DNA from: Blepharisma japonicum
Lineage: Eukaryota; Ciliophora; Heterotrichea; Heterotrichida; Blepharismidae
Direction of reading: 5' to 3'
Assembly: GCA_949751835.1 (NCBI GenBank)
Contig: CATKHK010000154.1
Coordinates: 1-45,565, forward strand
Length of the DNA: 45,565 bases
The position numbers and the translations under genes are program-made. A model generated the notes under the pieces. It was not told where the DNA came from. It saw only the letters and a program-made list of their open reading frames with translations, and did not search any database. Positions 761-45,565 of the stretch are shown piece after piece. The first letter of the stretch is position 1. The number at the start of each line of letters is the position of its first letter.

Positions 761-788
761 TAGATATCGAGCAACAAAGTACTAGAAT

Positions 789-16678: not shown

Positions 16679-18120
16679 ATAGAGAGCAAATTAGAAGTAG
16701 AAATCATCGAAAATTACGAGCCAACTACAGAAGAAATTATCAAGTACGGGGCATGACTTGGTCTAACTCTCCCAGATGATGAAGATTTGCTATACATAGC
16801 TCGAGAAGGTTTGAAAGTTCCTCTTCCTCAGCAATGAAAGAGATGCAAAACTCAAGAAGGCGATATTTATTATTTCAACTCCGAAACTGGCCAAAGTGAG
16901 CATCAGCATCCATGTGAGAGTCATTATAAACAACTAATAAGAGAAGCTAAGCGTTTAAACAGGCCTGAAAACGCAAAACCTAAAGCCAAGACAAACTTGC
17001 TTAATAATCAAATAAGTAGTGATTTCAACAGTAAACTCAAAAAAAGAGAAAGCGCTTTAAACATAAACAATTTAAGAGATAAAACAGCTGAGATCTTGAG
17101 TAGACCAAACAATCCAGAATTGGAGATGGATTTCAGAGATACATGCTCAAAATATCAGGCCAATTCTAATCTTCATGATCAACAATTAGTGCAAGCTTAC
17201 CAAGATTATCTTAAAGCTTATCAGCAAAAGACATCTCTTTATAATCTTAATTGAAGAAGCAATAGAAATGTGTTAGAAATTTATAACACTGAAACTGAAA
17301 CCAAAGAATCAAAAATCTTGAAGACTCCAAGAAAACTAGACTTTGGCACTTGCATAACTCAGCTTCCAAATGGCAAGCTATTCTGTTTTAGTAATTCTTC
17401 ATACTCTGGAATTGTAGTGCTGATTGATGTGAATGGTGGTATCGAAGTGCTGCCATCTGGAACAGAAAAATCTTTGCTATTTTTATCAATTTTGCACTCT
17501 CTATTCTTTAAATTTTTTTAAAATAGTTTCATTCAGATAAATTTCAACTTAGGCAAACTCAACCTAGCATTTCTTAAAAAATCGCTAAGAAATAGCACAG
17601 AACTCATTGTGCTCAATCATCATGTATCTATTTCAACAACAGTGTCTATTGCTTTGGAGGAATATATCATGGGAATTATTTAACTTTACTTAATAGATTT
17701 GATTTGGGTTTAAAACGATGAAAGCAATTAATTCCAATTGTAGAAAGTGATTTAGACTGCAATAGTATAATATTGAATCGGAATATTTTGATTGCTGGAT
17801 ATTTAAATAAAAATCTTTGACTATATTCAATTGATATTAACTCTTTCTCCACAAATCCTTATCAGTTTACAGGGTGTTGTCGAAAGATCCTGATAAATTC
17901 AGAGAGACTGTATTTGATTGAAAGTAACAATGGATCAATTTATGAAAGCGAAATTGGAAGTTACACTAATTGGAGAAGAATAGGAAAATCAACAATGTTT
18001 GATTGTTTTCAATGGTATTGTTCATATAATAAAGGAGGAAAATACATTCTATGGAAAGATTCTATCAATACTGCTTACTACAAGTTCGATTTGTATACAA
18101 AGTTAATGAACAAACTTTAA
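16679..18120 (+). pseudogene. A2: long-form WW/kelch paralogue, start lost and interrupted
   Basis: The frame aligns with A12 from its first codon, but the ATG is ATA (16679-16681). It then reads the full N-terminal module (NYEPTTEEIIKYG, DEDLLYIAREGL), a WW-like segment with LPQQW (TGA), GDIYYFNSET and HQHPCESHYKQL, the linker, and LPNGKLFCF. At LPSG it is interrupted by a 140-base insertion (17464-17603) that brings stops and shifts the frame by two. After the insertion the kelch half resumes cleanly (CIYFNNSVYCFGG...YKFDLYTKL) to TAA. Its YLIESNNG wording is closest to A1. Removing the insert on paper would restore the frame but not the start. Confidence 0.75.
17464..17603 (+). mobile_element. 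140-bp insertion flanked by GAAC, with subterminal inverted repeats
   Basis: Comparison with intact paralogues gives exact boundaries: TCTGGAAC, insert, then TCATTGTGCTC. GAAC is present on both sides (17460-17463 and 17600-17603), as for a 4-bp target duplication. TGCTATTTTTA (17475-17485) faces TAAGAAATAGCA (17586-17597), an imperfect inverted repeat near the ends, and a local hairpin (GCATTTCTTA with TAAGAAAT) sits at the right end. It has no coding capacity. It could be a MITE or a germline-type eliminated element. Filler sequence from break repair is the alternative. Confidence 0.55.
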
Positions 18121-18512
18121 AATAGTATTTTTATCAAATAGATTTAAAATATTTTTATTACTCTTAATGATTCAGCTTGAAAACTAAAAGCTCTTACCAA
18201 TATGGTTTATATATAAAAATATAATAGAAAAGTATTAAAATTATAAGTTATAGTAATATAAGCAATTGGGTAAATCCTTAATATATCTATGCCAGCTTTT
18301 TAGAATTTTTTCAAATGTTATTTTCTACTTTATTAAAATAAATTTTCAATTTCATAATGCAAATCTATATGAAATAAATTCTAACACTTGCAATAAATCA
18401 ATATTGAGACTTAAAATCAATTTTGATTGATTAAATAATTGCTTCAGAATTATACATCTTTAATAATCGTCTTTACTTAAAATCAGCTAAACGAGAGTAA
18501 TAATTATCTGTA
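18121..18512. other. Spacer A2-A3: 3' block plus 5' block
   Basis: The first part (to about 18385) is the family 3' block with GCTTGAAAACTAAAAGCTCT. The rest is the 5' block, with ATCAATATTGAG at 18397-18408 in place of the perfect palindrome and AATAATTATCTGTA before the ATG. Confidence 0.55.
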
Positions 18513-19709
18513 ATGGAAAACAAAATAGATGGCTCGAAAGCTCCTCTTCCTAGGAAAAGAAAGCGAAGCAAAAGTCGTGAAGGCGATATTTATTATTTCA
18601 ACTCCGAAACCAGCCAAAGTGAACAGCAGAGTCCATGTGAGAGCCATTATAAACAACTAGTAATGGAAGCTAAGAGCTCGAATGAACTTAAAAATATAAA
18701 ACCTAAAACCAAGAGCTTGCTTAATTATCAAATAAGCATTACCAACGATTCCAACAGTAAGTTCAAAGAAACAGAAAATGCTTTAAACATAGAAACTTTA
18801 AGAAATAAAACAGCTGAGATCTTGAGTAGACCAAACAATCCAGAATTAGAAATTGATTTCAGAGCAACATGCTCAAATTATCAGACCAATTCTAATCTTC
18901 ATGATCCACTGCTAATGCAAGCTTACCAAGATTATCTTCAAGCTTATCAACAAAAGACATCTCTTCATATTATTAACTGAGATATAGACGAGCAAGGAAC
19001 TGAGATAGAAATTTATAACACTGAAACTGAAACCAATGAATATAAAATCTTAAAGACTCCACGAAGATTAGACACTGTTACTTGCATAACTCTGCTTCCA
19101 AATGGCAAGCTATTTTGTTTTGGTAATAGATCATACTCTGGAATTGCAGTGCTAATTGATGTGAATGGTGTAGGTGAACTGCTGCCGTCTGGAATTTGTT
19201 CTGCTTGCTCATCATGTATCTATTTTAACAACAGTATCTATTGCTTTGGAGGGTTATATAGGAATTCTTTAACTCTATCTAATAGATTTGACTTGGATCG
19301 AAAAAGATGAATTCAATTAACTCCAATGCCAAAAACTGATACATGGTGCAATAGTATAATATTTAATAGGAATATTTTGATTTGTGGATATTATTATAAA
19401 AATATTTTGCTTTACTCAATTGATATAGACTCTTTCTCAACAATTTCTTATAATTTTGTAGGGTGTCGTAGAAAGATCCTGATAAATGTAGAGAGACTTT
19501 ATTTGTTTGAAATTCCTGGATTAATTCATGAAAGCGAAATTGGAAGTTACACTAATTGAAAACGGATAGGAACATCAACATATAATGATTTGAAGGGTCA
19601 TGCGTGTTGTTCATATAATAAAGGAGGAATATACATTGGTCTCTCTGAGATTTACAGGGCTACTTACTATAAATTCGATTTAAATAATAAGTTAATAATT
19701 AGACTTTAA
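18513..19709 (+). CDS. A3: short-form WW-derived/kelch-like protein (intact)
   Basis: 398 residues with three TGA as Trp. The N-terminus reads MENKIDG and passes directly to a LP-RKRKR-CK segment: about 37 residues present in long forms are missing in frame, and the WW tryptophan is Arg. GDIYYFNSET and the HY..L helix remain. The kelch half is complete (LPNGKLFCFGN, IYCFGG, KRWIQLTPMP, YKFDLNNKL). The stretch GTEIEIYNTETETNEYKILK is shared with A10 but not with the nearest neighbours, hinting at gene conversion. The start is chosen at the conserved MEN, right after the 5' block. Confidence 0.7.
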
Positions 19710-20660
19710 AATAAATTTTTTATCAAATAGATGCTTAAAATATTTTTATTACTCTTATTACTTCAGCTTGAAAACTAAAAGCTCTTACCAATATGGTTTA
19801 TATATAAAAATATAATAGGAAAGTATTAAAATTGTAAGTTTATAATAATATAAGCACTTGGATAAATCCTTAATATATCTATGCCAACTTTATTGAATTT
19901 TTCAGATGTTATTTTCTACTTTATTAAAATAAATTTTCAATTTCATAATGTAAATCTTATAATTTTGTATATGAACTAAAGATCTGAGGATCAATTATAT
20001 TATTATTAGTCCTAAAAGTATTTAAGCAAGAATCAAAAAGGTTCCCTTTTTGAAAATAATGAAGATTTAGGCGGCTGGATAATCAAAGATTTATACTTCT
20101 AATCTTGAGATTATCAGCTTGCAACTTATTAATCTGAATTGCCTTTTTAAAAGATATATTTTTAAAATCTCAATAAATACGCTAGAACTAGAGAAGAGAA
20201 TCTTTGTGCAGAATTTACACTTGCGTTGCAGCGACCCAGAACACAAGAGATTGAAATTTGAAGGTTCAAATTGTAATTTTTTATTTTATTTAATAAAGAT
20301 TCATTCAAGCTGTCAAACTTTAGAATCATTTTTTAGGAAGATCCTTTTAGGATTATTGCTCTATTATTATTATTAATATTATTATTTTCTATATTTTCTT
20401 TTTACATATATGCAATTTATGGAAGAAAATCTATTATGCTTCAATTGATCAAAATTTATAACACAAAAGCTCCCAAAAATTTGAATCTGATAAGCTAAAG
20501 TTCAGAATAAGCTATGATAATTCAAAAACTTTAACACTTCTAATAAATCAAAATTGATACTTAAAATCTCTTTTGATTGATTAAATAATTACTTTAGAAT
20601 TATTTATCTTTAATAATTGTATTAACTTAAAATTAGCTAAGCGAGTAATAATTATCTGTA
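19710..20660. other. Spacer A3-A4 with duplicated unassigned sequence
   Basis: 3' block to about 19965, then about 560 bases also found at 36005-36545 (starting near GATCAATTATATTATTATTA), then the 5' block of A4 from about 20545. The duplicated part contains an open fragment (SLFENNEDLGGWIIKDLYF) on plus that soon meets TAA. The plus ORF at 20119-20376 is not conserved in the other copy, so I do not call it a gene. Confidence 0.5.
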
Positions 20661-21859
20661 ATGAAAAACGAAATAGATGGTTTGAAAGCTCCTCTTCCTA
20701 GGAAAAGAAAGCGATGCAAAAGTCGTGAAGGTGATATGTATTATTTCAACTCCGAAACCAGCCAAAGCGAACAGAAGCATCCATGTGAGAGTCATTATAA
20801 ACAACTAGTAATTGAAGCTAAGCGCTTAAATGAGCTTAAAAACGTAAAATCTAAAACCAAGAGCTTGCTTAATTATCAAATGAGCATTACCGACAATTTC
20901 AACAGTAAGCTCAAAAAACAGAAAGCGCTTTAAACGCAATAGACACTTTAAGAAATAAAACAGCTGAGATCATGATTAGACCAAACAATCCAGAATTAGA
21001 AATGGATTTCCGAGCAACATGCTCAAATTATCAGACCAATTTAAAACTTTATGATCCACCGCTATTATGAGCTTACCAAGATTATCGCATAGCTTATCGG
21101 CAAAAATCATCTCTTTATATTATTTACTCAGAATCAGTCGAGTGAACTAAGTTAGAAATTTATAACACTGAAACTAAAACCAAAGAATCTAAAATATTGA
21201 AAAATCCAAATAAACTAAGCTAAAAAGACTACTATGGCATAGCTCAGCTTCCAAATGGCAAGCTATTCTGTATTTGAAATTATTGATCCCCTAATATTAC
21301 ACTGCTAATTGATGTGAATGGTGGAGTCGAAGTGCTGCCATCTGGAGCTCCTTGCAGATACTGTACATTTATATATTTCAACAACAGTGTATATCGTTTT
21401 GGAGGAAATGATTTAAAACTATCCTATAGATTTGATTTGGATCTAAAAAGATGAATTCAATTAACTCAAATGCCAAGAGTTGATTACTTGTGTAATAGTA
21501 TAATATATAATGGGAATATTCTGATTTCTGGATATTCAAATAGAAATCTCTTATTATACTCAATTGATATTGACTCTTTCTCAACAATTTCTTATGAGTT
21601 TGCAGAACGGAAAAGAAAGATCCTGATAAATATAGAGAGACTGTTTGTGATTGAAGATATTTATGGATCAATCTATGAAAGTGAAATTGGAAGTTACACT
21701 AATTGGAGGCAAATAGGAAAATCATTAATCGATACTTGCTCTATTCAAGTGTATTGTTCATATAATAAAGGAGGAATATACATTGCATGCGGGAGGGTCT
21801 CTTCAAATCCCTCTTATTACAAGTTTGATTTGAATAAAAAGTTAATGAGTAGACTTTAA
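20661..21859 (+). pseudogene. A4: short-form paralogue, frameshifted
   Basis: Starts MKNEIDG with the RKRKR signature, then loses one A in an A-run near 20917, where the frame reads to TAA. The next frame resumes at the RPNNPELEMDF block, meets a TAA near 21220, and then is open to the end with kelch-like VYRFGG, SYRFDLDLKRW (TGA), LTQMPRV and YKFDLNKKLMSRL. The VYRFG and LTQMPRV wording is shared only with A8, its partner in the segmental duplication. The C-terminal 130 codons are intact and could fool a gene finder. Confidence 0.75.
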
Positions 21860-22768: not shown

Positions 22769-23950
22769 ATGGAGAACAATATAGATGGCTTTGAAGCTCT
22801 TCTTCCTGAGATGAGAAAGCAATGCAAAAATTGGACGAGCCAAAGTAAACAGCAGAATCCATCTGACAGTCATTATAAAAAACTAGTTAGAGAAGCTAAG
22901 CGCTTGAACAGACTTAAGAATATAAAATCTAAAACCAAAATAAAATTGCTGAATTGTCAAATGAGTACTAATAATGATCTCAACAGTGGGCTCAAAGAAA
23001 CAGAAAATGCTTTAAACATAGAAACTTTAAGAAATAAAACAGCTGAGATCTTGAGTATTCCAAACAATCCAGAATTGGAGATGGATTTCAGAGCAACATG
23101 CTCAAATTATCAGACCAATTCTAATCTTCATGATCCACTATTAATGCAAGCTTTCCAAGATTATGTTAAAGCTTACCAGCAAAAGACATCTCTTTATATG
23201 ATTAACTGAAATATAGCCGAGGAGGAAAATAAGTTAGAAATTTATAACACTGAGACTGAAACCAAAGAATTTAAAAACTTTAAGACTCCAGAAATACTAG
23301 ACCTTGGTACTTGCATAACTCAGCTTCCAAATGGCAAGCTATTCTGTTTTAATAATACTTCATGCTCTGGAATTGCAGTACTAATTGATGTGAATGGTGT
23401 AGTCGAAGTGCTGCCATCTGGAACTCCTTGCTCTGAATCATCATGTATCTATTTCGACAACAGCGTCTATTGCTTTGGAGGAGATAACAAGGGATATGAT
23501 TTAAATCTATCTAATAAATTTGATTTGTATCGAAAAATATGAATTCAATTAACTCCAATGCCAAATACTGATAGATGGTGCAATAGTATAATATTTAATG
23601 GTAATATTTTGATTTCTGGATATTCAAATAGAAATCTTCTATTATACTCAATTGATATTGATTCTTTCTCAATAATTCCTTATGAGTTTGCAGAGTGTAT
23701 TAGAAAGGTCCTGATAAATGCAGAGAGACTGTATTTGATTGAATTACGTGGATTAATTTATGAGTGCGAAATTGAAAGTTACACAAATTGGAGAAAAATC
23801 GGAGCCTCTTTAGTTAGGAGTGATCTTCATCAAGTGTATTGCTCATATAATAAAGGAGGATTATACATTGGTGATTCTGGTTGGTCATGGTTTTCAGATA
23901 CCTCTTACTATAAGTTCGATTTGAATAAAAAGTTATTGAGTGAATTTTAA
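22769..23950 (+). CDS. A5: short-form paralogue with truncated WW region (intact)
   Basis: 393 residues; TGA as Trp at the NWNIAEE and KIWIQL positions. The N-terminus MENNIDGFEALLPEMRKQCK jumps to SKQQNPSDSHYKKL, so the GD.YYFN strands of the WW are gone (about 12-16 residues) on top of the short-form loss. A9 shares this, its partner in the segmental duplication. The kelch half is complete, ending YKFDLNKKLLSEF. The linker KSKTKIKLLNCQMST matches A10, not A9. Confidence 0.7.
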
Positions 23951-24504: not shown

Positions 24505-27500
24505 TTAAGCCTTAGATTTGGATTCTTCGACTGCAGGAAAAGCTTGAATGATAAAGTATCTGACAATCATATTTATTGTTTCCATAATAAAGATCTCAAC
24601 CAATATCCCCCATAAGAAGCTCACAGCCGAGTATCCACTCCATTTATGACAGAAATCAATGCTTAGCATAACATTCCGACAATTGATCAAAAAATAATGG
24701 CATCCCCGAGAGTTACTGCAGCTGCTGACCACTGTGGAGCTTTAATTCGATCAATGCTAAATGCAACTATCTTAAAGATTTCAGCTGGGATTGTAATTGC
24801 TAAAGCCAAGATCATGTATCCGAAGTAGTTTCCATCATAATTATCAAATAGCGTCTGAGTTGCTGTTTCACTTCCTGAGTGATGTCTTCAGATCCAAAGT
24901 AGAGTAATCCTTCAAGTAATAATTCAAAGATGATGGCTACCACCAAAGTAAATAATCTTGCAATTCTGGTAAATGTTGGTCTGCAATAGAACAGTCCGAA
25001 AGTTAAATGTCCTTCAATTAATTCTTGGAGCTCATACTTGATATCAGCCTCAGGTTTCTCATCATCAGCTGGGCCTGCGACTTGCTGAACAATCGAGTTT
25101 TCTGTTATATCAATTTCTTGAGACTCAACAATTTCGTCATCTGCACTACCTGACTCTCCGCTTTCGACAGACTTTTCTCCTTGAGATGCATGAACACTTA
25201 TATAGTGGCGCATAAGCTCTCTTTCAGTTGGTCTAAGAGAATGAGATGGTGAGTTGTGAAGTAATTCTTGGTAAGGGCTTGAGCAGTTGAAGGATAACTA
25301 ATTCTGTCAATAATAACCATGATTGGAGAAAGAATCAAGCCAAAGAACAAAGTAACAACAAGAATGCAAATAGGAGCATAGTTATCGTCACAACTTAAGC
25401 TTGTTGTTGGGTCATATGGTGGATTGTCACTAGGGTTAATCTCAGTGAGTCTGCACATTGAGAAATGATAGACCTTGAATGTGATCGTTTGAGTTGTGCT
25501 ATTTATTTCTGCTATCTTGCAGTTAGAATCAGTCCAATTTGATGTTGTCTCATTATAATACTGGCAACCCCACGCCATACCCTCTGAAATATACTTGTAG
25601 TAAGGGAACTCAATAAGGAATGGATAGTCTGAAGAGGAGTATGGGACATAGGTTTCATCTGTAGCAGTAAGAGTATAATCTTTGTATGTGCCTGAATTTC
25701 CAAAGCTGAATGTAGCCATATCAGAAAATAGATCATTTGCGTACTTGTGTAGAAATTTGCTCTCATGTTCATAATACTTTCATCATCAAATTCAAGTGTG
25801 CTTGGATAAGTAAGAACTCTGCTCTTTGAGTATTCCTTAGTTGCATTTTGCATTTCTGCTTTAAAGTTTCTGTCTTTATAAATCATGGTATTATCAGTAT
25901 TTTGCTTTCCACTTAGCGAAGTTTGAGTTACTAAGTCTTCATAGGTGGCTTTAATTGCCCAAGTCAGATAAAAGCCATTAATGTACAGAACAGATTGTTC
26001 AAAGATCAATTCTGAGAAGTTGGTACTATTTCCATATTTCAGGTAACTCTCACCTAGCATGATCACTGTGTTCATATTATCTTGGCTTGGATAGAGTGTG
26101 TAAAAGTAGTCAAAATACTCTTAAGCCAAGTTATTATCTGATCATACATACTAATGCTCATCAAACTAGTTTGTCCAGTCATTGAGTAAACAGATCCTAG
26201 AATATTTTCAAGTAGTGTTGTTGTCATGCTGCTTTGACTCTGAACATAAGATTGCAAATCACTCCAAATCTTTGCAAACAAAGAACTATCAATAGAAGCG
26301 CTGGAGCAGAACAAAATAATAGAAGAAGGAATATTATCTGGATCAAGAGTCAATGATAAGTAAGCATCCATTAATGAACTAGTATCTAAACGCCTTGAAG
26401 AAGAGTATTTGCTTACTGTAAATGTTTTAGATGAGTAGTCATTACAAGTGTTAAGTTGATCACAAACATGAGCAGAAACAGCCTGATCACCTGTAGACAA
26501 TTTAGTCGAAATTTGATTTTCTTCAGTTGTGGACCCTATAGTGTATTTTGTGTCTTTTATGCTAGCCAGATAATATTGATATGTGTAAAGAAGTGGATAG
26601 TCTTCATCATCAAGATCAAAACATCCTGTAATTGAAATTCTAAATGTATCAGTCAAGGCCATTCCGCTTTTTGGATATACTTGGGGATTAGCTTGACAGG
26701 ATGCGCCTAAGTTAACTGAGACAGATAAGTCCACACTTAAGCTCACACTACTAGAGTCTGTAATCTTCAAAGTGAAAACATATGATATTCCATCAGCCAT
26801 TGATGATGCAGAAATTGAAAGAGATGGAAGATTATTTGGTGATATATCAATCGATGATTCAGATTTCTGCGATCATATAAATGTAGATCCACTGCTTGCA
26901 AAAACACTTGCTGAGTATTTATTCTTCTCCTGGCTATAACCTTTGTAGCAATTGCTGGGATTTCAATTGAACTAGATGTAGCAACATTGAGGACTGTGAT
27001 AGTGACAGTTAAGCTTGTATATAGTTCTAGTATCTTTTGATATTGTACAAGTTATATCCCAATTCGCACCCTTTACTATTCTTGCAGAAGGAATAGTGAG
27101 TTCACTCTTTGTTTCACTGCTTAGCAAGGCTGCACTATCTGCGCCAGTGCATGTGGGCCCGTCTTCATGATTAGCACATGTCCAAGTATAAGTAAGAGAT
27201 GTTGTAGAATCATCTGGATCTTTAGATTTATTAGCATTAATGGTATAGTCCTTTGATGATGAAATTTGTCCACTACCTTTTGATAGCTCAATGTATAAAG
27301 GAGATGATATAACTTAACCGACACTGTAGCGCTCCCAATAACTGCTGTGACACTATTGTCTTGAGAACTAGTTGCTGTAAAAGAATAAGTACCACCAGCA
27401 GTAAATATGTTCTTAGAGATTGACAATTTTTGAGTTGTAGTACTTGCAGCAAGAGTAGATGCTTTACTATTATCAGGGGTTGATACATATGACCATTTCC

Positions 27501-30500
27501 AAGAAATTGAACTTGTTGATCCTCCACAAATAGATGTCACTTTAGCTTTAACATCTTTGCTATCAGAAGCTTTCATTGTAATTACACTTCCTGAGTCGAA
27601 TGAAACAGACAATGATTGCTGAGGAGAAATCGATGTTGTCACTGATGCTGAGCTTGTTGTATCACTCAACCAATTCTTGACCGTTACAGTTACTGTCAAA
27701 GTTGCGCTAGAAGTTACTGAGCTTAGCTTGCTTCTATCAATTGAAACAGTTGATGATGATGCTGATGTAGATGCAATATAGCTAGTAAACTTGAAAGAGC
27801 AGGAGACATTGTAGCATCCCATGCATAAGTAAGATTGCTTCCAATGATCCTGAAGACTTATCAGCTGAATACGAAAGTGGATCAGAACCACATCCAGGGA
27901 AATAGAGCTTGGTCCTGATAGCTTGACTGTCGGGCTTATGTTAGATAACATAGTTACTGAAGTGCTTAATGCTTGATAGTTGATTGTGCATGTATTTTGG
28001 TATCCTTAAGAATATAGGTGCCCATCCAAATCAATAGTGCCGCTTCTTATTGTGAATCCTGAGCCTAAGGAAATTTTCAAGCTCTTTGAATCAGTCTAAG
28101 AACAAACTGGGCCACTTCCCATTTTTTGATAAGAGTCATAAGTAAGTGTCTTGGAACATGTCGGATCAACTGTGATATCTACTGGAACCTTAAATGTTAT
28201 AGTGATAGATTTATATGATGTACTATAAGATGCACTCACTACATCAGAAGGTGCAAGATATTTCTCGCAAACAACGCATTTGCTATTTGATAAAGTATAG
28301 CCAGAGTTGCAAACACAGGTTTTCGAAGTAGCATCATATGCTGAATTAGCAGTACATGCGCAAGTTGTTCCAGTTAGCTCAGCCTTAGTAATATATCCAG
28401 AGCACTTCTTACTATCATTTGCATCACATGCAGTACAAAGGCTGTTGTATGTTGCTATACAGTCATTTGTAGAGTTCAAATAAAATCCAGAATTGCAAGC
28501 ACAAAGACCATTGGATATTGATACATTGGTTTTGAAAGCTGTGCAAGCAGTAGCTGAAGTACACTTAGAGCATGACGTTGGACACTGAGTGCAATTTCCA
28601 CCTGAAGAATAATATCCACTATCACATGAGCATATACTAACAGTAGTATTTTTAGATGCGCCAGTAATGCATGCCGAACATTTTGTAGCAGTGGTGCAAA
28701 TTAAACAATAACTTGTACATGCTGTGCAGTTGCTTGTGTCTTGATAGTAATTAGATGAGCAAGTGCAGGCCCCATCCTTTAAGTCAGCATTTGCTTTGCA
28801 TTTCTCACATTTCCCATAACTTATAGTAGAGTATGTGTCGCAGTTGGCTAATGAACATGTGCAAGATGTTGATGTTGTATCCCAGCTAAATCCGGAATTG
28901 TATTCTTGGCTGGTTCCATAAGTAGTTGATGAGCAAGTCTTACAGTTAGTAATTGAGCACCCACAAGATTTTGCTGTAGAATCTAGTGTAAATCCAGATT
29001 GACATGTTTCACAGTTTCCATATGTGGTTGTCGAGCACGTTAAACAATTAGCGATTGAGCACTTGCATAATAATGATGTACAACTCCAGGTAAACCAGTC
29101 TTTACATGTACAAGTTCCTGCTGAAAGGTTCATATTTGTTGAGTTTTTGCAAGTATCGCATTTTGAACTGCCTGATCCAGAACAAGTAGAGCAAGTGTAA
29201 TCGCAAACTTGACAAGTAGTAGTCGATATTGAAGCATTCCAATAATAGCCATCTTCGCCTTTACATTGTCCTGGCTTGCTTGATTGACTCATATGAGTTG
29301 TAACTTTGCATTCTTTACAATTAATAGTGCTTCCAGAGCATGAATCGCAACTTTTTACGCACTGAGGAGCACTAGAATCAAAGTATACAGTAATGCAAGT
29401 ACAAGTGCCTGGAGGTCTAGAATTGATCATATTTGATGAGTCTTTGCAGGTATCGCATTTTGAGCTACCACCACTTGAGCAAGTTTCACATGCAGTATCA
29501 CATGCTTGGAAAGTAGTTGTTGATATTGAACCATCATAATAATAGCCCCGCTGCATGTACATAATTTTTATCTTTATAAACAGAAAATTCATCATTACAA
29601 ATGCCACATTCTGTATTTGAGCCAGTCACGCAAGTTTTGCAGTTGGTAACTCCGCATTTTATTGTGTAAGATGATTCATCAGAGCTAGAAGTGCACCCAT
29701 CATTAGAAGTGGTACATTTGGCTGTTGAGCCACTTTCACAAGATTTGAAGTTAGACACTCGCATGTTGAAACACATGATGCTCCATCAGAGCTGGCAGCA
29801 TATCCATCCTTACAAGTGTCACATTTTGTTGTTGGGTCGGTGGTACAAGTTTTGCAGTTAGACACTCCGCATGCTATATTGTAAGTAAGATAATCAGCAC
29901 TTACAGTGTACCCATCTTACAAGTGTCGCATTTTGATGTATAGTCGGTGGTACAAGTTTTGCAGTTAGAAACTGAGCATACGTTGCAAGATAAACTATCA
30001 GAGCTTGTAGCATATACATCCTTACAAGTGTTACATTTGGTTGTGGGTTAGTGGTACAAGTTAAGCAATTAGAAACTGTGCATTCCAAACGTCTTTCTGC
30101 CTTGGATGACTCATTTCTTTTTCTTCCATCGTTGCCAACTTCACTTTTGATGAGGTTCTGGATTAACATGTCTGATACTTTAGGCTCAGCATTCTCTAAT
30201 TCTCTTTCACTTTCAACTCTATCTTTACTAATAGTGCTATCTTCAATTAGGTATTGAGTTGAGCCATCCACTTTTGCATTTTCTAGAATTGATAGATTAG
30301 TTGTATTGTTTACTTCCCCATGATAAATAACACCTTCTTGGGTCTGATGCTGGGAGGACTGGGTTTGAGATTCAGATTCAGTTTTACCTAATTTTATTTC
30401 ATTTCCTTCAAGTTCGCCATCCTGGTGAGAGACGATGCCTTTTTGGATCCAGTGATGGACGGTTTCTGGGCTTGAGCCGGGTGAGCTAGGGACAAAGTTG

Positions 30501-30505
30501 AAGTT
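24505..30505 (-). pseudogene. Large cysteine-rich, REJ/GPS-type membrane protein, heavily frameshifted
   Basis: From about 30505 downward: a Ser/Gln-rich N-terminal stretch, then many CxxC repeats (SNCKTCTT, KCDTCKDGY) of the furin-like/growth-factor-receptor cysteine-rich type to about 28300. REJ-like repeats follow (YTWTCANHEDGPTCTGAD, SISWKWSY, GGTYSFTATSSQD, and at 26700 PKSGMALTDTFRISITGC). At about 25560-25440 a GPS-like segment appears (GCQYYNETTSNW ... VYHFSMCRL). Then come a membrane segment (ICILVVTLFFGLILSPIMVI) and several C-terminal membrane segments to TAA at 24505. TGA is Trp at STFIWSQ. At least a dozen frame changes and in-frame TAG and TAA (near 28098 and 28012) break it. 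The N-terminus is cut by the junction to A6, so the true start is missing. Polycystin/sperm-receptor-like proteins share this order; the role here is unknown. Confidence 0.7.
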
Positions 30506-30514
30506 TGGTAAGCA

Positions 30515-31611
30515 AAATTAATGAAGCAACAAGCTTATAAAGACTACACTAGTGCTTATCGCCAAAAAAATCCCTTATACTATTATAAATGTTAATAACA
30601 GAACTAATTTATATATTTATGATACAGAAACGAAAGTGAAGACATCAGGGTGGTAGAAACTCCTAAACCACTAAACTGGCACTCATGTTTTGCTCAACCG
30701 CCTAATGGAAATTTATTTTTTTTTGGTAAAAGATAACCCAGTTTCTGAAATTTCATTGATAATTGATGAGAATTATAGAGTTCAAGAGCTGCCATCTGGG
30801 AAAATAAGATCAAATTAATCTTTTCATAAAATCAAGGTAAAAAAAAGCAAATATCATAGCCCCTTGCAACTCCTTGCTACAACTCATCATCTATTAAGCA
30901 TTAAATCTTTTCAAAGACTCTATTAGGACTGTATTTTGCAATTGAAGCTGAGATTTCATGTCCTAAAGAGATTTTGGTTTATCAGAGAAAAAATCTGTTG
31001 TGCTATATTTATTTCAATAATAATGTTTATTGCTTTGGAGAGTTGGTAATAACGATGAAAATTTAATTCTATCAGAGAGATTTGATTTGAACGAAAGCCG
31101 ATGGATTAAATTAAAGCCACTACCACAAGCTGATGCTAATTGCAATAACATAATATTTAATAAGAATATTTTGATTTCTGGATGTGAAAATAAAAATCTT
31201 TCGATATCAATTGATAGAAAAAGCTTTAAAACAATTTTTTATGACTTTGCAGCTTACCAAAGAAAAATCCTAATAAATTCAGAGAGAATCTATTTAATTG
31301 ATTATGAAAATGGATCGATATATGAAAGCGAAGTTTTAAATGACACTGTCTGGAGACGAATTGCAGATTCAAATATAAGTCATAATTATTGAGAAGTTTA
31401 TTTATCGTATAATAAAGGAGCAATAAACATAGCTATATACATCCTATTTCAAGATTTTTGAAGAATTGACATTGTTAGCATCAATGCACTGTATTTGACT
31501 AAGCCCATCATAAGAAGTAAAAGACGATATTGCGGCACAGATTTCGAAGGTGGGATTAGATGCTACAAGTTTAATTTAAAAGAAAAACTATTGATTACAC
31601 TGCCTCAATAA
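30515..31611 (+). pseudogene. A6: divergent kelch-like paralogue, 5' truncated and interrupted
   Basis: Homology starts abruptly at the linker (QAYKDYTSAYRQK, matching QAYQDYLQAYQQK). TAA TAA follow soon. VVETPKPLNWHSCFAQPPNG and ELPSG are in different frames. Two inserted stretches interrupt the LPSG-CIYF region (about 30801-30875 and 30905-31010). From 31030 the frame is open to TAA 31611, with TGG at the RWIKL position that is TGA in all the other paralogues. This is direct evidence for UGA as Trp. The end is unusual: after SYNKGAINIAIY it has about 25 extra residues before CYKFNLKEKL. It is the most diverged A member. Confidence 0.6.
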
Positions 31612-31984: not shown

Positions 31985-32004
31985 AAGTCTTTTGCACATT
32001 TTGT

Positions 32005-32366: not shown

Positions 32367-33002
32367 TCATCTCAAGTGGAAGCAATTGTACAGCATTCAG
32401 GGATTTTTATAAATATGTTTGTGTAATGTCTATTTAGCATGCCCTGAAAACTGCACAGAATGCACCTCTTTAATAAATTGCACATCATGCAAGAGCGGAT
32501 TTTATTTGCGTGATTATGGAAACTCTGTAAATTGCATATGTAATAATAATTTAGCTTGCGAATCTAAAATTGATAATAATGCGCCTACATATTTGTGTGG
32601 GAACCATACAGAACTAAGCTGCAATAGCACTTCATTTGGGTTTGAACTTGACATTGAAGATGGCAAAATATATATTAACTTTGCAGCAGATTTAGGAAGG
32701 CCCCTGAAGAAGAACGACTTTACAATTAAGTATGGAGATAATCTCACATATAATGCTTCTTCGAGCAGCTTATTTCGAGTTGACAACATGCATTATTATA
32801 TTCAAACTGATTTAAGCGATTGCAACTTGCCAATAACTGTTGATTTGCGCTTTAATTTCTCATAGATACTAAATTCAATAATAAGTAGAAGAATTTATAA
32901 ATTTTATCTATTTCTTTTAAGTATGGAGTATTTGTTTATTCAGTTAAAAAAATGTTATTTACCGGAGTAATTTGGTAGTTTAGTAATGCATTATCTATAC
33001 TT

Positions 33003-34242: not shown

Positions 34243-35034
<792 letters not shown>

Positions 35035-35210: not shown

Positions 35211-35753
35211 TATATCTATTTCAACAACAGTGTTTTCTGCTTTGGAGGAAATACCTATGGATATGAATTAAATCTATCTAATAAATTTGATTTGGATCAA
35301 AAAAGATGAATTCAATTAACTCCAATGCCAAAAGCTAATACATGGTGCAGTAGTATAATATTTAATGGGAATATTTTGATTTCTTTATATTATCATAGAA
35401 ATCTTCTATTATACTCAATTGATGTTGATTCTTTCTCGAGAATTCCTTGTAATTTTGTAGATAGTCAATGAAAAATCCTGATAAATGCAGGGAGACTATA
35501 TTTGATTGAAGGCAGTGGATGAATTTATGAGTGCGAAATTGAAAGTTACACAAATTGGAGACAAATTGGCCACTCAACAAAGATCGATTGGGTTTATCAA
35601 GTGTATTGCTCATATAATAAAGGAGGAATATACATTGGTTATGTTGGTGAGATTGGTAATAAAGGTTGTATTGGCAATTATGGTGAAGAAGGGTTTTCAG
35701 ATACTTATTACTATAAGTTCGATTTGAATAAAAAGCAATTGAATGAATGTTAA
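35211..35753 (+). pseudogene. A7: kelch-like C-terminal fragment fused to the Arf fragment
   Basis: Begins in the middle of the family, at IYFNNSVFCFGG, and is open to TAA 35753 with TGA as Trp at KRWIQL, QWKIL and GWIYE. The C-terminus carries an extra Gly/Asn-rich loop (GYVGEIGNKGCIGNYGEEGF). The N-terminal 250 or so residues and the 5' block are absent. Confidence 0.7.
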
Positions 35754-36672
35754 AAAATTATTTATCAAATAGACTTTTTAAAAATTTTTATACTCTTTAA
35801 TGCTTCAGCTTGAAAACTAAAAGCTCATACCAGCATGCTTTATATGTAAAAATATAATAGGAAACTATTAAATTGTAAAGCTATAAAAAATAAGTACTTG
35901 AATAAATCCTTAGTATATTTATACAGCTTTTTAGTATTTTTTCAGATATTATTCGTCTACTTTTCTAAAATAAATTTTCAATTTGCATACTTTGCGTTTG
36001 AAATAAAGATCTTGAGCATCAATTATATTATTATTAGTCCTAAAGTATTTAAGCAAGAATAAAAAAGGTTCCCTTTTTGAAAATAATGAAGATTTAGGCG
36101 GCTGGATAATCAAAGATTTATGCTTATAATCTTGAGATTATTAGTTTGCGACTTATTAATCTGAATTGCCTTTTTAAAAGATATTGATTTAAAATCGCAA
36201 TAAATAGGCTAGAACTAGAGAAGAGAATCTTTGTGCATAATTTAAACTTGTGTTGCAGTAACACAGAACACAAGAGATTGAAATTTGAAGGTTCAATATG
36301 CAATTCTTTATAAAATTTAATTTTATTAAATAAAGATTCATTCAAGCTGTTAAACTATAGAATCATTTTTTAGGAAGATCCTTTTAGGATTATTGCTCTA
36401 CTATTATTTTCTTTTCACATATATGCAATTTATCGAAGAAAATCTATCATGCTTCAATTGATTAAAATATATAACACAAAAGCTCCCAAAAATTTGAATC
36501 TGATAAGCTACAGTTCAGAATAAGCTATGATAATTCAAAAACTTTAAGATTTGCAATAATCAATATTGATACTTAAAATCTATTTTGATTGATTAAATAA
36601 TTGCTTCAAAATTATACATCTTTAATAATCGTCTTTGCTTAAAATCAGCTAAGCTAGTGATAATTATCTATA
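35754..36672. other. Spacer A7-A8 with duplicated unassigned sequence
   Basis: 3' block to about 36000, then the copy of 19980-20540, then the 5' block of A8 from about 36545. The minus ORF at 36124-36345 is not kept open in the other copy. Confidence 0.5.
36559..36672 (+). promoter_or_regulatory. 5' block of A8 (exemplar of the family leader)
   Basis: Perfect 12-bp palindrome ATCAATATTGAT (36559-36570), then TTTTGATTGATTAAATAATT, ATCTTTAATAATCGTCTTT, AAATCAGCTAAGCTAGT, and GATAATTATCTATA before the ATG. The same order precedes A2, A3, A4, A5, A9 and A10. Conservation outside the coding region suggests promoter function, but recent duplication alone could explain it. Confidence 0.45.
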
Positions 36673-37872
36673 ATGGAGAACGAAATAGATGGTTTGAAAG
36701 CTCCTCTTCCTAGGAAAAGAAAGCGATGCAAAAGTCGTGAAGGCGATAATTATTATTTCAGCTCCGGAACTAGCCGCAGTGAACAGAAGCATCCATGTGA
36801 GAGCCATTATAAACAACTAGTAATGGAATCTAAGCATTTAAACGGATTCGAAAATGCAAAACCTAAAGCTAAGGCAAACTTACTTAATTATCAAATAAGC
36901 ATTATTAATGATTTCAACAGTGAGCTCAAAGAAACAGAAAATGCTTTAAACATAGAAACTTTAAGAAATAAAGCAGCTGAGATCTTGAGTAGACCAAACA
37001 ATCCAGAATTGGAGATGGATTTCAGAGCAACACGATCAAATTATCAGACCAATTCTAATCTTCATGATCAACAGCTAATGCAAGCTTTCCAAAATTATCT
37101 TCAAGCTTATCAGCAAAAGACATCTCTTTATTATCTTAGAATTGATAACAAGAGGAGAATTAATTTAGAAATTTATAACACTGAAACTGAAACCAAAGAA
37201 TCTAAAATATTGAAAACTCCAAATCAAGTAAGCTTTGATAATTGCTATAGCATAGCTCAGCTTCCAAATGGCAAGCTATTCTGTATTTGAAATTATTATT
37301 CATCTGAAATTACACTGCTAATTGATATGAATGATGGAGTCGAAGTGCTGCCATCTGGAACTCCTTGCTGATACTCTTCATGTATATATTTCAACAACAG
37401 TGTATATCGTTTCGGAGCAATATGTGGTTTAAAACTATCCTATAGATTTGATTTTGATCTAAAAAGATGAATTCAATTAACTCAAATGCCAAGAGTTTAT
37501 AACCACTGCCATAGTATAATATTTAATAGGAATATTTTGATTTCTGGATCTGAAAATGAGAATCTTCTATTATACTCAATTGATATTGATTCTTTCTCAA
37601 TAATTTCTTATAAGTTTGCAAAGATGAAATGAAAACTCCTGATAAATGCAGAGAAACTGTTTGTGATTGAAGATAATTGAGGATCAATCTATGAAAGTGA
37701 AATTGGAAGTTACATTAATTGAAGACAAATAGGAAAATCATTAATCGGTCCTTGCTCTGTTCAAATGTATTGTTCATATAATAAAGGAGGAATATGCATT
37801 GCAGGCGGAGGCTTTTGAAATCCCTCTTACTATAAGTTCGATTTGAATAAAAATTTAATGTGTAGACTTTAA
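36673..37872 (+). CDS. A8: short-form WW-derived/kelch-like protein (intact)
   Basis: 399 residues with seven TGA read as Trp, the most of any member (FCIWNYY, PCWYSS, KRWIQL, KMKWKLL, DNWGSI, INWRQI, GFWNPS). NWRQI is TGG in most paralogues. N-terminus MENEIDG with the RKRKR signature, YYFSSGT, KHPCESHYKQL. Kelch half VYRFGA, SYRFDFDLKRW, LTQMPRV, YKFDLNKNLMCRL. A normal-code gene finder would cut it at residue 205. Confidence 0.7.
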
Positions 37873-40400: not shown

Positions 40401-41591
40401 ATGGAGAACAAAAATGATTGTTTGAAAGCTCCTCTTCTTAGGAAAAGAAAGCAATGCAAAAATCTTGAAGACGATATTTATTATTTCAACTCCGAAACCA
40501 GCCAAAGTGAACAGCAGCATCCATCTGACAGCCATTATAAAAGAGAACCTAAGCGCTTGAACAGACTTAAGAAGAAATCTAAAACGAAGATAAAATTGCT
40601 GAATTGTCAAATGAGCACTACTAATGATCTCAACAGGAGGCTCAAAGAAATAGAAAATGCTTTAAACATAGAAACTTTAAGAAATAAAACAGCTGAGATC
40701 TTGAGTAGACCAAACAATCCAGAATTGGAGATGGATTTTAGAGCAACATGCTCAAATTATCAGACCAATTCTAATCTTCATGATCCACTGCTAATGCAAA
40801 CTTACCAAGATTATCTTAAAGCTTATCAGCAAAAGACATCTCTTTATATTATTAACTGAAATATAGACAAGAAAGGAACTGAGATAGAAATTTATAACAC
40901 TGAAACTGAAACCAATGAATATAAAATCTTGAAGACTCCAGAGAAACTAGACCTTGGTACCCGCACAACTCAGCTTCCAAATGGCAAGCTATTCTGTTTT
41001 GGTAATAGTTCATACTCTGGAATTGTAGTGCTAATTGATGTGAATGGTGAAATTGAAGTGCTGCCATCTGGAACTTCTTGCTCTAATTCATCATGTATCT
41101 ATTTCAACAAAAGTGTCTATTGTTTTGGAGGTTATTACAAAGGATGCGATTTAAATCTATCTACTAAATTTGATTTGGATCAAAAAAGATGAATCCAATT
41201 AGCTCCAATGCCAGATGCTGATACATGGTGCAATAGTATAATATTTAATGGAAATATTTTGATTTCTGGATATTCAAATAGATATCTTCTATTATACTCA
41301 ATTGATATTGATTCTTTCTCAATAATTCCTCGCTATTTTGTAGAGAGGGATTGAAAAATCCTGATATATGCAGAGAGACTGTATTTGATTGAACGCGGTA
41401 GATCAATTTATGAGTGCGAAATTGAAAGTTACACAAATTGGAGAATAATAGGAGACTCAGAAATGATGCGAAATTTTTATCAAGTGTATTATTCATATAA
41501 TAAAGGAGGAATATACATTGGTTGTGGAATTTATTCACAGACTTATTACTATAAGTTCGATTTGAATAAAAAATTATTGAGAAAACATTAA
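40401..41591 (+). CDS. A10: short-form WW-derived/kelch-like protein (intact)
   Basis: 396 residues. MENKNDCLKAPLLRKRKQ carries the Arg signature; DDIYYFNSET and QHPSDSHYK remain, but the helix after it is shortened (REPKRLNRL). The linker KSKTKIKLLNCQMST matches A5 and EIEIYNTETETNEYKILK matches A3. Kelch half VYCFGG, QKRWIQLAPMP, ERDWKILIYAERLYLIE (TGA), YECEIESYTNW, YKFDLNKKLLRKH. Confidence 0.7.
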
Positions 41592-41783: not shown

Positions 41784-43030
41784 ACCATTTTACTAGATTT
41801 TGTAATAAATGTAATAAAATTGGACATTAATCTGATAGATGCACAAATATAAACAATGCTGAGCTTTATAAAAGGAAATTAAATGAATTTATGAGTGAAA
41901 TTAATAGACATATGGGTACCCAAGCTTATTATAGCAAAATTATTCATTTTCCACCAGCACTTATTAAACTTACGAATGAAAATGAAGATGTAGTTAGTGG
42001 AAGTTTTATTGAAAAAGGCAAGAAAGAGGAAAATTTCTCATTAACTTCTGCTATATGATCAAACGAACATTTAATTCATAAATTCTGTGAAGAGAAAAAC
42101 TGAGATTGCATTTGCTTTGATATTAAAACAGATGGCCCTTTAAGCAGAAAATTCAAATCGCTGATTAGTTATGTATTAAAGAACTGTCTGGGGATAAACC
42201 AGAAATAAAAATGAAGAAGGAAAAAAATATATTGAAATCAGATAAAGACTCTATTAAAGTTGCTTGCATAAACATTCAGAATAATAAACTAGGGATAAAA
42301 ATTACTCAATAAAAGAAATTGAATGATCAAACTGTGACCTGATAGGAATTCTAGAAAGTGAATTTGGAGAACTTATAAGTAAAAATTTTAATAAAATCCT
42401 CAAACTGGATAATTAAGGATTGCAATATATGCTAGATTCTGGAAATTGAAAAATTCTAGAAAAAGATAGCAACAATGAATATCAATTTGCAATTGCCGAA
42501 GGGTTAGGATTCAAAACCTGCTTTATCTATGCAAGACCTAAATGTAAAACAGAGGAATTTGTGAAACTTTTAAGAAGCATTGAAAAATATCAATGTGATA
42601 TAATTACCGGAGATTTCAATTTACTTATTAAAGGCTATCTATCAAACAAAAATGACAAGATTAACAAAATACTTCTTGACTACCTTGAAGAATATGACTA
42701 TAAAATCAGAAACTCTACTAATAATCCAGCTTTTAAAAAAATAAACTGCCAAAAAATTATTGATTATACATTTAGCAAATTTCCCATTGATTTATTCCTT
42801 TATGAAACAGAAAAAACTTCACATATGATACAATTTATTAAGATGAGCAGAAAAAACAGGTGTTTAGATTTTCAAATTAATAAGAATATTAAAATTGACT
42901 ATGCTAATTATGAAAATATGAAGAATATATTGTGGAATCTTGCTGAAATAGATATTAGCAATTGAGTATGAGCATTTCAGAGTTCTTTTCGATGAGCATA
43001 TGGAAGAAGAAACAGAAGAATCAGCAATAT
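41784..43030 (+). mobile_element. Non-LTR retrotransposon copy 2, 3' truncated
   Basis: Closely similar to 789-2039, starting at the same base (ACCATTTTACTAG). Zinc knuckle at 41801-41842, but with TAA in place of Tyr (H-stop-SDRC). The endonuclease with ITGDFN is open over 42561-42965. It ends at 43030 (CAGCAATAT), before the RT. It lacks a one-base loss of copy 1 near 1095 but has its own loss near 42170. Loss of the 3' end is the reverse of the usual 5' truncation of these elements. Confidence 0.85.
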
Positions 43031-43093
43031 GAAGTATCAGAATGATCACATTAAGTTGGATTTTAAAAATAGTCTTAGTAATAATTATTTGTA
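43031..43093 (+). promoter_or_regulatory. Shortened leader of A11
   Basis: Only AGTAATAATTATTTGTA before the ATG resembles the family leader. The palindrome and upstream elements were replaced by the retrotransposon fragment. Confidence 0.35.
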
Positions 43094-44422
43094 ATGAGAA
43101 ACGAATTAAAAGATAAGATCAAAGAAGATTACGAGCCAACACCAGATGAAATTATCAAATACAGCATTTTGCTTGGTCTAACTCTTCCAGATGATGAAGA
43201 TTTGCTCTACATAGCTCGGAAAAGTTTGAAAGATCCTCTTCCTCACCCATGAAAGCGATGCAAAACTCTCAGTGGTGATATTTATTATTTTAACTTCGAA
43301 ACCGGCCAAAGGGATCCACAACATCCACGTAATTGCCATTATAAACTATGAGTAAGAGACGCTAAGTACTTAAAAGAGTTTGGAAAGATAAAATCTAAAA
43401 CCAAGAGTTTGCTTAATTATCAAATAAGCAGTACTAATGATTTTAACAGTAAGCCCAAAGAAACAGAAAACGCTTTAAACATAGAAACTTTAAAAAATAA
43501 AACAGCTGAAATCTTGAGTCGACCAAATAATCCAAACATGGAAATTGATTTTAGAGTAACTTGTAAAAAATACCGGAACAATTCTAATCATCATGATCTG
43601 CCGCTAATGCAAGCTTACCAAGATTATCTTCAAGTCTATCAGCAAAAGACATCTCTTTATATTTTTAACTGATATATACACAAGCAGGAAACTAAGTTAG
43701 AAATTTATAACACTGAAACTGAAACCAAAGAATATAAAATCTTGAAGACTCCAGAAAAACTAGAGATTGGTACTTGCATAACTCAGCTCCCGAATGGCAA
43801 GCTATTCTGTTTAGGTGATAATAGTTCTTCTATTACACTGCTAATTGATCTGAATGGCGGAATCGAAGTGCTGCCATCTGGAACTCCTTGTTCTCACTCA
43901 TCATGTATCTATTTCAACAGCAGCGTCTATTGCTTTGGAGGAATACATTATGATGCATTTACTCTATCTAATAGATTCGATTTGGATCGAAAAAGATGAA
44001 TTCAATTAACTCCAATGCCAGAAGCTGATTGAATGTGCAGTAGTATAATATTGAATGGGAATATTTTGATTTCTGGATATTCAAATAGAAATCTTTTATT
44101 ATACTCAATTGATATTGATTCTTTCTCAACAATTTTTTGTGAGTTTGCAGAGTGTAGTAGAAAGATCCTGATAAATGCAGAGAGACTGTATGTGATTGAA
44201 GATAATGGTGGATCAATCTATGAAAGCGAAATTGGAAGTTATACGAATTGGAGACGAATAGCAGAATCAGCAATCAAAAATTATACTGAGCAAGTCTATT
44301 GCTCATATAATAAAGGAGGAATATATATTGGTTATATCGGTTATTTAGGTACGGGACTTTTTTTCAATACTTATTATTATTATAAGTTCGATTTGAATAA
44401 AAAATTATTGAGAAAACGTTAA
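43094..44422 (+). CDS. A11: long-form CEP164-type WW/kelch-like protein (intact)
   Basis: 442 residues, open with TGA as Trp, including the WW tryptophan (TGA 43250-43252). The full N-terminal module is present: DYEPTPDEIIKYS, LPDDEDLLYIARKSL, LPHPWKRCK, GDIYYFNFETGQ, QHPRNCHYKLW. The second WW tryptophan position is RDPQHP, so it is missing. Kelch half LPNGKLFCLGD, VYCFGG, KRWIQLTPMP, YESEIGSYTNW, a Gly/Tyr/Phe loop, YKFDLNKKLLRKR. The retrotransposon fragment ends only 63 bases upstream, so its expression may be affected. Confidence 0.75.
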
Positions 44423-44754
44423 AAAATTATTTATAAAATAGATTTTTTAAAAATTTTATATTCTTTAAAGCTTCAGCTTGAAAACTAAAAGCTCTAATTA
44501 ACATCTTTATATGTAAAAATATAATAGGAAAGTATTAAAATTGTAAGGTTATAAAAATATAGACACTTGGATAAATTTTATATATATATGCTGACTTTTA
44601 GTATTTTTTCAGAAATATTCGTCTACTCTTCTAAAATAAATTTTCAATTTGCTTAATGCAGATCCTATAACTTTGTGTTTGAAATAAAGATCTTAAACAA
44701 ATGTATTAATTATTGCTTTTTGATAATATTTTATTTATATAATAATTATCTGCA
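44423..44754. other. Spacer A11-A12
   Basis: 3' block with GCTTGAAAACTAAAAGCTCT to about 44690, then a different AT-rich leader ending TAATAATTATCTGCA. The palindrome of the short-form leaders is not seen. Confidence 0.5.
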
Positions 44755-45565
44755 ATGGAGAACAAATTAGAAGGAAAAATCATTAAAAATTATGAGCCAA
44801 CACAAGAAGAAATTACCAAGTACGGCATATGGCTTGGCCTAACTCTTCCAGATGATGAATATTTGTTATACATAGCTCAGAAAGGTTTGAAAGATGCTCT
44901 TCCTCATCAATGAAAGCGATGCAAAACTAGAAAAGGCAATATTTATTATTTCAACTTCGAAACCGGCCAAAGTGGAAAGCAGCATCCATGTGAGAGCCAT
45001 CATAAGCAACTAATAAGGGAAGCTAGGTGTTTAAACCTGCTTAGAAATGTAAAACCTACAACTTTACTTAATTATCAAATAGGCATTACTAATGATTTCA
45101 ACAGGAAGCACAAAGAAATAGAAAACTCTTTAAGCATAGACACTTTAAGAAATAAAACAGCTGAGATCTTGAGTATTCCAAACAATCCAGATTTGGAGAT
45201 GGATTTCAGAGCAACATGCTCCAATTATCAGACCAATTCTAATCTTCATGATCCAATGTTAATGCAAGCTTACCAAGATTATCTTCAAGCCTATCAGCAA
45301 AAGACATCTCTTTATATAATTAACTGAGATATAGACAAGCAGGAAACTAAGTTAGAAATTTATAACACTGAAACCGAAACCAAAGAATCTAAAATCTTGA
45401 AGACTCAAGAAAAACTAGACTTTGCTACTTGCATAACTCAGCTTCCGAATGGAAAACTATTCTGTATTGGTAATACTTTATACTCTGGGATTACAACGTT
45501 AATTGATGTAAATCATGAAGTCGAAGTGCTGCCATCTGGAACTCCTTGTGTTTATTTATCATGTA
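44755..45565 (+). CDS. A12: long-form WW/kelch-like protein (3' end outside the window)
   Basis: Open for 270 codons to the window end with TGA as Trp (TGA 44911 is the WW tryptophan). MENKLEG, NYEPTQEEITKYG, DEYLLYIAQKG, LPHQWKRCK, GNIYYFNFETGQSG, QHPCESHHKQL, the linker, LPNGKLFCIGN and LPSGTPC. It is the best reference for the undeleted N-terminus because its first seven codons match those of the short forms. Completeness cannot be judged. Confidence 0.7.

What the first reader, a model, noticed from the sequence alone, without database searches (positions are those of the whole stretch)
16679..45565. Tandem family fusing a CEP164-type WW module to a kelch-like half-propeller
Twelve copies or fragments lie in 41 kb. 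Seen directly: long forms carry NYEPT.EEI.KYG, LPDD..LLYIA..GL, LP..WKRCK, YYFN, HPC.SHYKQL in that order, followed by a linker and kelch-like blocks. From memory of the family, CEP164 has the same order (EI..FA, ELMWLAREG, APLP..WKPC, DIYYFN, DHPCDEHYRSL). A fusion to a kelch-like domain and its expansion into a cluster is, as far as I know, not described. A basal-body or cortical role is only inference. A1 (4755-6071, minus) belongs to the same family.
Basis: partly seen in the sequence, partly recalled or inferred. Interest (0 to 1): 0.75.

Follow-up and report, generated by a model that had tools for sequence, protein, structure and literature searches.

The report
Kelch gene family capturing CEP164 module
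In a Blepharisma ciliate, a fast-changing family of Kelch binding proteins has picked up the front end of the cilium protein CEP164, and what evolves fastest is the Kelch binding face while the cilium-derived part is decaying.

Summary
The interpretation needs changing. The Kelch half belongs to a large family (about 250 motif hits above control in this genome) fused elsewhere to kinase, Cys/His-rich and, in B. stoltei, TPR and U-box modules. The CEP164 module is listed in none of 61 B. stoltei relatives. Separate CEP164-like genes exist. All four aromatic residues that bind TTBK2 survive in 1 of 20 long copies read (4 of 6 CEP164-like genes); the seven short copies read lack the first two helices and Trp62. 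Module omega rises from 0.07 (CEP164-like) to 0.68 (long) to 1.18 (short). Variation concentrates on the Kelch BC/DA loop face, the substrate face of KLHL20; omega there is 2.0 and 3.7 in two sets of close relatives, but not significantly above 1 in larger sets on ungapped columns. Best reading: a diversifying ligand-recognition family, not a basal-body family.

The parts
4758..6071 (-). Copy 1 (A1), long, intact, 438 aa: CEP164-type module (res 10-95), helical linker (128-184), six-bladed Kelch (184-438)
16691..18111 (+). Copy 2, long form interrupted at about 17474-17601 by an insert with in-frame stop
18513..19706 (+). Copy 3, short form, open frame, 398 aa; module truncated, Arg at the W62 position, Gln at the W84 position
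20679..21850 (+). Copy 4, short form, frame broken near 20891-20924
22769..23947 (+). Copy 5, short form, open frame, 393 aa; WW strand with Y73-F77 missing
30521..31449 (+). Copy 6, divergent Kelch-only remnant (50% identical over residues 281-416, 26% over 168-280)
35214..35756 (+). Copy 7, Kelch-only 3' fragment
36673..37869 (+). Copy 8, short form, open frame, 399 aa
38832..39992 (+). Copy 9, short form, open frame, 387 aa; WW strand missing
40401..41588 (+). Copy 10, short form, open frame, 396 aa
43094..44419 (+). Copy 11, long, intact, 442 aa; Pro at the W84 position
44755..45565 (+). Copy 12, long, cut by the contig end after residue 270; Lys at the W84 position

Best explanation
These genes are one branch of a Blepharisma family of ligand-reading proteins. 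SHOWN by computation: each intact long protein is a CEP164-type WW-in-helical-bundle module, a helical linker and a complete six-bladed Kelch propeller; the same linker+Kelch cassette is joined in other members to a protein kinase, a Cys/His-rich module, TPRs or a U-box; variation is concentrated on the BC/DA loop face of the propeller and in two sets of close relatives exceeds neutral expectation; the CEP164 module has mostly lost the aromatic groove that binds TTBK2 in human CEP164 and is under much weaker constraint than in CEP164-like genes. INFERRED: the Kelch face binds a changing set of peptide or protein ligands; the N-terminal module decides what happens to what is bound; in this branch the captured CEP164 module was tolerated as a plug or scaffold and is being discarded, so the Kelch half carries the function. 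INFERRED and least certain: the ligands are variable foreign or self-identity molecules, i.e. defence or recognition.
Against: In the larger, more divergent sets the loop omega depends on gapped columns: ungapped BC+DA gives 1.13 (36 sequences, 2dlnL 1.8), 1.11 (25 fusions, 0.95) and 1.05 (18 long, 0.17), none significant. The 7 short copies are not one clade in the cassette trees. In the 7 Cys/His sequences the AB+CD class was also 1.54, not different from 1. BC/DA variability between paralogues is usual for Kelch proteins (PMC10146909 passages), and I had seen where the alignment varies before I made the loop classes. Gene conversion was not modelled. No expression, ligand or localisation data. 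One long copy (C210) keeps all four groove aromatics, though it is cut by its contig end after 384 aa, and the long copies' module is still at omega 0.68, significantly below 1, so some may retain module function.
Confidence: 0.55

Rival explanations
1. Basal-body/cilium adaptor: the CEP164 module docks the protein to CEP164 partners (TTBK-type kinase) at transition fibres and Kelch recruits cargo.
For: The module is CEP164-type by sequence and fold; W62 kept in 19 of 20 and Y73 in 18 of 20 long copies read; module omega 0.68 is below 1 in long copies; copy C210 keeps the complete groove.
Against: W84 kept in 4 of 20 and the full quartet in 1 of 20 long copies, although Y73A, F77A and W84A each strongly reduce TTBK2 binding in human CEP164 (PMC8752127 passages). 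The coiled-coil body is absent, and human CEP164 truncated at 525 does not reach the centriole (same passages). The 7 short copies read lack the first two helices and W62 while 5 of the 6 short copies in the window keep an open frame.
Confidence: 0.12
2. Ordinary paralogue birth-and-death with relaxed constraint and no specific recognition role: loops vary because loops tolerate change, and the CEP164 piece is a passenger.
For: Pooled pN/pS 0.68-0.98 between copies; broken copies and fragments; ungapped BC+DA omega not above 1 in the three larger sets; BC/DA loops differ between Kelch paralogues generally.
Against: Omega significantly above 1 on ungapped BC+DA in two sets of close relatives; AB/CD and strands are constrained (0.58, 0.67), so copies are not simply neutral; the same face varies in B. 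stoltei.
Confidence: 0.25
3. A substrate-receptor family for ubiquitin ligases (U-box, Cys/His module, Kelch), where variable Kelch faces select endogenous substrates and the CEP164 branch acts as a non-catalytic competitor.
For: U-box-Kelch proteins in B. stoltei (P0039, P0051); Kelch fold closest to KLHL proteins and designed Kelch propellers.
Against: No BTB domain in the three fusion proteins scanned; U-box in 2 of 61 listed B. stoltei relatives; in this genome 50 U-box matches were found but their link to Kelch was not examined.
Confidence: 0.08

Closest known systems
CEP164 (centriolar distal appendage protein, N-terminal WW domain in helical bundle)
   Same: Residues 10-95: same fold and order; the own-genome CEP164-like P0066 is 6e-29 to the human domain.
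   Different: No coiled-coil body; TTBK2 quartet incomplete in 19 of 20 long copies read; fused to Kelch.
KLHL / Keap1-type Kelch propellers
   Different: No BTB or BACK hit; swapped N-termini; loops differ even between close paralogues, whereas each KLHL protein is said to conserve its own loops (PMC10146909 passages).
finTRIM family of teleost fish (PMC2657112, abstract and outline seen)
   Same: Lineage-specific expansion in clusters, near-identical N-terminal regions, C-terminal recognition domain under positive selection, exon shuffling.
   Different: B30.2 there, Kelch here; finTRIMs were found as virus-induced transcripts, nothing is known of expression here; no RING hit here.
Kinase-Kelch, TPR-Kelch and U-box-Kelch proteins of Blepharisma stoltei (unnamed products)
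   Same: Same linker and Kelch cassette; 42-69% identical to A1 over the aligned part.
   Different: Other N-terminal modules; none of the 61 listed shows a WW domain in its Pfam column.

Membership tests
CEP164 | N-terminal WW domain inserted in a helical bundle | tested here: met
   (long copies; the short copies lack the first two helices)
CEP164 | TTBK2-binding aromatic quartet Y73, F75, F77, W84 | tested here: not met
   complete in 1 of 20 long copies read; A1 has Y, F, T, S; complete in 4 of 6 coiled-coil CEP164-like genes
CEP164 | Long coiled-coil body after the N-terminal domain | tested here: not met
   Kelch propeller at 184-438 instead; CEP164-like genes whose continuation looks coiled-coil by eye are separate loci
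CEP164 | Localises to distal appendages / transition fibres | not testable with these tools
   needs imaging
Kelch propeller (six-bladed) | Six blades of four strands, closed ring | tested here: met
BTB-Kelch (KLHL) Cul3 adaptor | BTB and BACK domains | tested here: not met
   no BTB or BACK among Pfam hits up to E 10 in three fusion proteins
TRIM / finTRIM-like recognition family | Recognition face under positive selection | tested here: inconclusive
   yes in two sets of 7 close relatives on ungapped columns, no in sets of 36, 25 and 18
TRIM / finTRIM-like recognition family | RING and B-box N-terminus | tested here: not met
   no RING or B-box hit at E 0.01 in the Cys/His-Kelch protein of L072 and none at E 10 in three fusions

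The most novel reading that the evidence does not exclude
A previously unrecognised recognition repertoire in a single-celled eukaryote: a few hundred Kelch readers with a diversifying binding face, combined with interchangeable output modules (kinase, TPR, U-box, Cys/His, CEP164 module), rapidly turned over between closely related Blepharisma species and working as cell-autonomous defence or self/non-self recognition.
Probability: 0.3. Interest if true: 0.88.

Novelty: new variant of a known kind. Interest (0 to 1): 0.68.

Why it matters
If true, ciliates have their own counterpart of TRIM- or NLR-like diversified receptors, built on a Kelch propeller whose output end is exchanged like a cassette. 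It also gives a natural case of a disease-relevant domain (CEP164 N-terminal module) captured, amplified and then losing its partner-binding groove step by step, with long and short forms side by side.

Tried and rejected
Half-propeller: rejected, six full blades. Several independent captures of the CEP164 module: the free cassette trees place the C22 pair and C158 apart from the main clade, but one clade is not rejected (p-AU 0.63, and the held tree was 4.7 log units better), so a single capture is kept as default. P0004 of B. stoltei at 95% coverage looked like a CEP164-Kelch protein; its N-terminus is a kinase and the coverage is a weak extension. Loop omega above 1 in the full sets: not robust to dropping gapped columns. 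N-myristoylation of copies starting MG: only one of the few I held by eye against the recalled PROSITE pattern fits, not used. Subtelomeric location: 34 of the 100 listed motif places (of 284) lie within 10 kb of a contig end against 3.6 expected, 66 within 50 kb against 18.4; but only 2 of 40 sampled contig starts show CCCTAACA (one more reads N) and several contigs end inside family copies, so assembly breaks explain it as well. Module search in proteins of 240-766 aa: 43 candidates, none at E 0.001; search with the CEP164-like gene in proteins of 428-1363 aa: 159 hits at E 0.01, 120 listed, none of those with a Kelch Pfam domain; relatives outside those lengths, unannotated, or among the 39 unlisted would be missed. 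Left out of the residue table: module fragments on C42, C44, C96:137276, C143:10920 and C22:137917, the broken short copy 4, and short copies C167:17574 and C167:2545. Absence in print rests, 78 of an open-licence library; I opened none of the papers listed there except PMC2657112.

Full report
WHAT THE WINDOW IS. The window is contig C154 (45,565 bases, its full length) of a 45.2 Mb, 224-contig genome. TGA is read as Trp in the family genes. The telomere repeat CCCTAACA described for Blepharisma (PMC9942806 passages) stands at the start of 2 of 40 sampled contigs. The own-genome CEP164-like protein P0066 is identical to a B. stoltei protein at 735 of 776 positions without a gap. So this is most likely a Blepharisma close to, but not, B. 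stoltei; the species was not identified.

THE OBSERVATION. A1 and copy 11 match human CEP164 1-109 at 1.5e-14 and 5.1e-15. Kelch_6 and WW pass their Pfam cut-offs in A1; in copy 11 only Kelch_6 does; copy 9, a short form, has no WW hit.

THE FAMILY BEYOND THE WINDOW. A1 finds 97 matches in the own genome (96 of 1075 first-look candidates scored; a lower bound); most cover only about residues 97-430. In the loci I read, such frames start with something else: a protein kinase or a Cys/His-rich stretch without Pfam hit. The first 271 residues of one Cys/His-Kelch gene find 143 matches (142 of 594 scored). A similar Cys/His start stands before TPRs without Kelch in window ORFs 8204-9310 and 10704-12272, and before TPRs in a frame of L035 that runs off the locus (Cys/His start by eye). 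In B. stoltei the same cassette follows kinase, TPR, U-box and Cys/His stretches. A degenerate pattern for RLYLIE in the Kelch part hits 284 times against 33 for the reversed pattern, so about 250 cassettes is a rough estimate.

WHERE THE CEP164 MODULE CAME FROM. The module alone finds 43 matches; all 51 candidates were scored. Six belong to long frames that continue, by eye, as coiled coil (C33, C37, C31, C24, C48, C21); P0066 from C33 is 6e-29 to the human domain. A1's module is 67% identical to that of C33 and 45-53% to the other five. In C33 this gene lies head to head with a kinase-Kelch gene, 416 bp between the first in-frame ATGs, which suggests but does not show how the two could meet. 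None of 61 B. stoltei family proteins lists a WW domain. A module-only search found none in 240-766 aa proteins. A search with P0066 found 159 proteins, 120 listed, none of those with Kelch. One capture in this lineage, or loss in B. stoltei, fits; a single clade of fusions is not rejected (p-AU 0.63).

THE MODULE IS LOSING ITS GROOVE. In human CEP164 the TTBK2 peptide packs on Y73, W84, F75 and F77; Y73A, F77A and W84A strongly reduce binding, F75A moderately (PMC8752127 passages). Of 20 long copies read, W62 is kept in 19, Y73 in 18, W84 in 4, and the whole quartet in 1 (C210, itself cut by its contig end). Of 6 coiled-coil genes, W84 is kept in 5 and the quartet in 4. W84 is replaced by Ser, His, Pro, Lys, Leu, Gln or Arg. 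All 7 short copies read have Arg at W62 and Gln at W84, and 4 of 7 lack the whole Y73-F77 strand. Omega of the module is 0.07 in the six CEP164-like genes (deep divergence, so rough), 0.68 in 20 long copies (2dlnL 10.7 against 1) and 1.18 in 7 short copies (37 codons, not different from 1).

THE BINDING FACE IS WHAT CHANGES. Loop classes were taken from the model's secondary structure; I had already noticed in the alignment that variable stretches recur, so the classes are structural but not blind. Mean entropy over 27 fusion sequences is 1.99 (BC loops) and 1.83 (DA), against 0.48 (AB), 0.63 (CD) and 0.88 (strands); 0 of 20000 permutations reach the difference between faces; pooled pN/pS is 1.41 for BC+DA and 0.49 for AB+CD (260 of 351 pairs). 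In KLHL20 the substrate surface is shaped by BC and DA loops (PMC6720452 passages). The entropy pattern recurs in B. stoltei (55 sequences; 20 of one clade). Codon ML with all columns: BC+DA omega 1.44 (36 sequences, 2dlnL 20.4), 1.38 (25 fusions, 11.5), 1.24 (18 long, 3.6), 1.87 (7 short, 9.4), 3.58 (7 Cys/His, 23.4); AB+CD 0.58, strands 0.67, helices 0.53 in the 36; within the 7 Cys/His, AB+CD was 1.54, not different from 1 (kappa held in the null). With ungapped columns and the best of a kappa grid in the null: 1.13 (36), 1.11 (25) and 1.05 (18), not significant; 1.97 (7 short, 9.5) and 3.69 (7 Cys/His, 20.5) remain. The 7 short copies are close relatives but not one clade. None of 200 random 75-codon classes reaches 1.44 (mean 0.89). 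I conclude that close relatives diversify on this face, and that in older comparisons the signal cannot be separated from alignment effects. High loop variability between paralogues is itself usual in Kelch proteins (PMC10146909 passages). Two of 27 fusion sequences (interrupted copy 2, cut copy 12) were too short for the codon trees.

TURNOVER. CEP164-like P0066 is 95% identical between the two species, yet A1's top B. stoltei matches are 54-62%, and the near-full-length matches here to the B. stoltei kinase-Kelch P0004 are 62-70%. In this sample the 7 own Cys/His-Kelch genes form one clade (support 100, 99) and 20 B. stoltei sequences, several with TPRs, another (100; 98 for the 9 kept). The family seems to have been expanded separately in each species.

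MECHANISM AND VERDICT. A constant scaffold with a changing binding face plus exchangeable N-termini is what recognition families look like; finTRIMs in fish are the closest parallel I looked up (abstract and outline only). In the CEP164 branch the captured module is degenerating, so I think the Kelch half carries the function and the module is a passenger or scaffold in most copies. A basal-body role is not supported, though not excluded for copies such as C210. What is bound, and why, is unknown; defence or self-recognition is an inference.

Noticed in passing
window 764-3586 and 41831-43094: Two copies of a non-LTR (LINE-like) retrotransposon reading, with CCHC-like, endonuclease-like and reverse-transcriptase-like stretches by eye; the second ends about where copy 11 begins. 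Broken frames; described only.
   Followed up: no
window 8204-9310 and 10704-12272: Two related proteins with a Cys/His-rich start, coiled-coil-like stretch and likely membrane segment (by eye) and TPRs: an N-terminal type like the one fused to Kelch elsewhere in the genome.
   Followed up: partly
window 17474-17601 (inside copy 2): An insert of about 130 bp with ACAGAA near both ends interrupts a long copy; could be a small mobile element or retained eliminated sequence.
   Followed up: partly
L071 (C33:413000-418600): CEP164-like gene head to head with a kinase-Kelch gene, 416 bp between first in-frame ATGs.
   Followed up: partly
contig ends in G000: 34 of 100 listed RLYLIE places (of 284) lie within 10 kb of a contig end (3.6 expected); subtelomeric clustering or assembly breaks in repeats.
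   Followed up: partly
window 24660-30517 (minus) and 32413-32865 (plus): Large cysteine-rich, membrane-protein-like reading in several frames (by eye); a 520 aa piece has no Pfam hit at E 0.01.
   Followed up: no
window 34243-34833 (minus): ARF-family small GTPase (Pfam Arf 9e-67) sitting between family copies.
   Followed up: no
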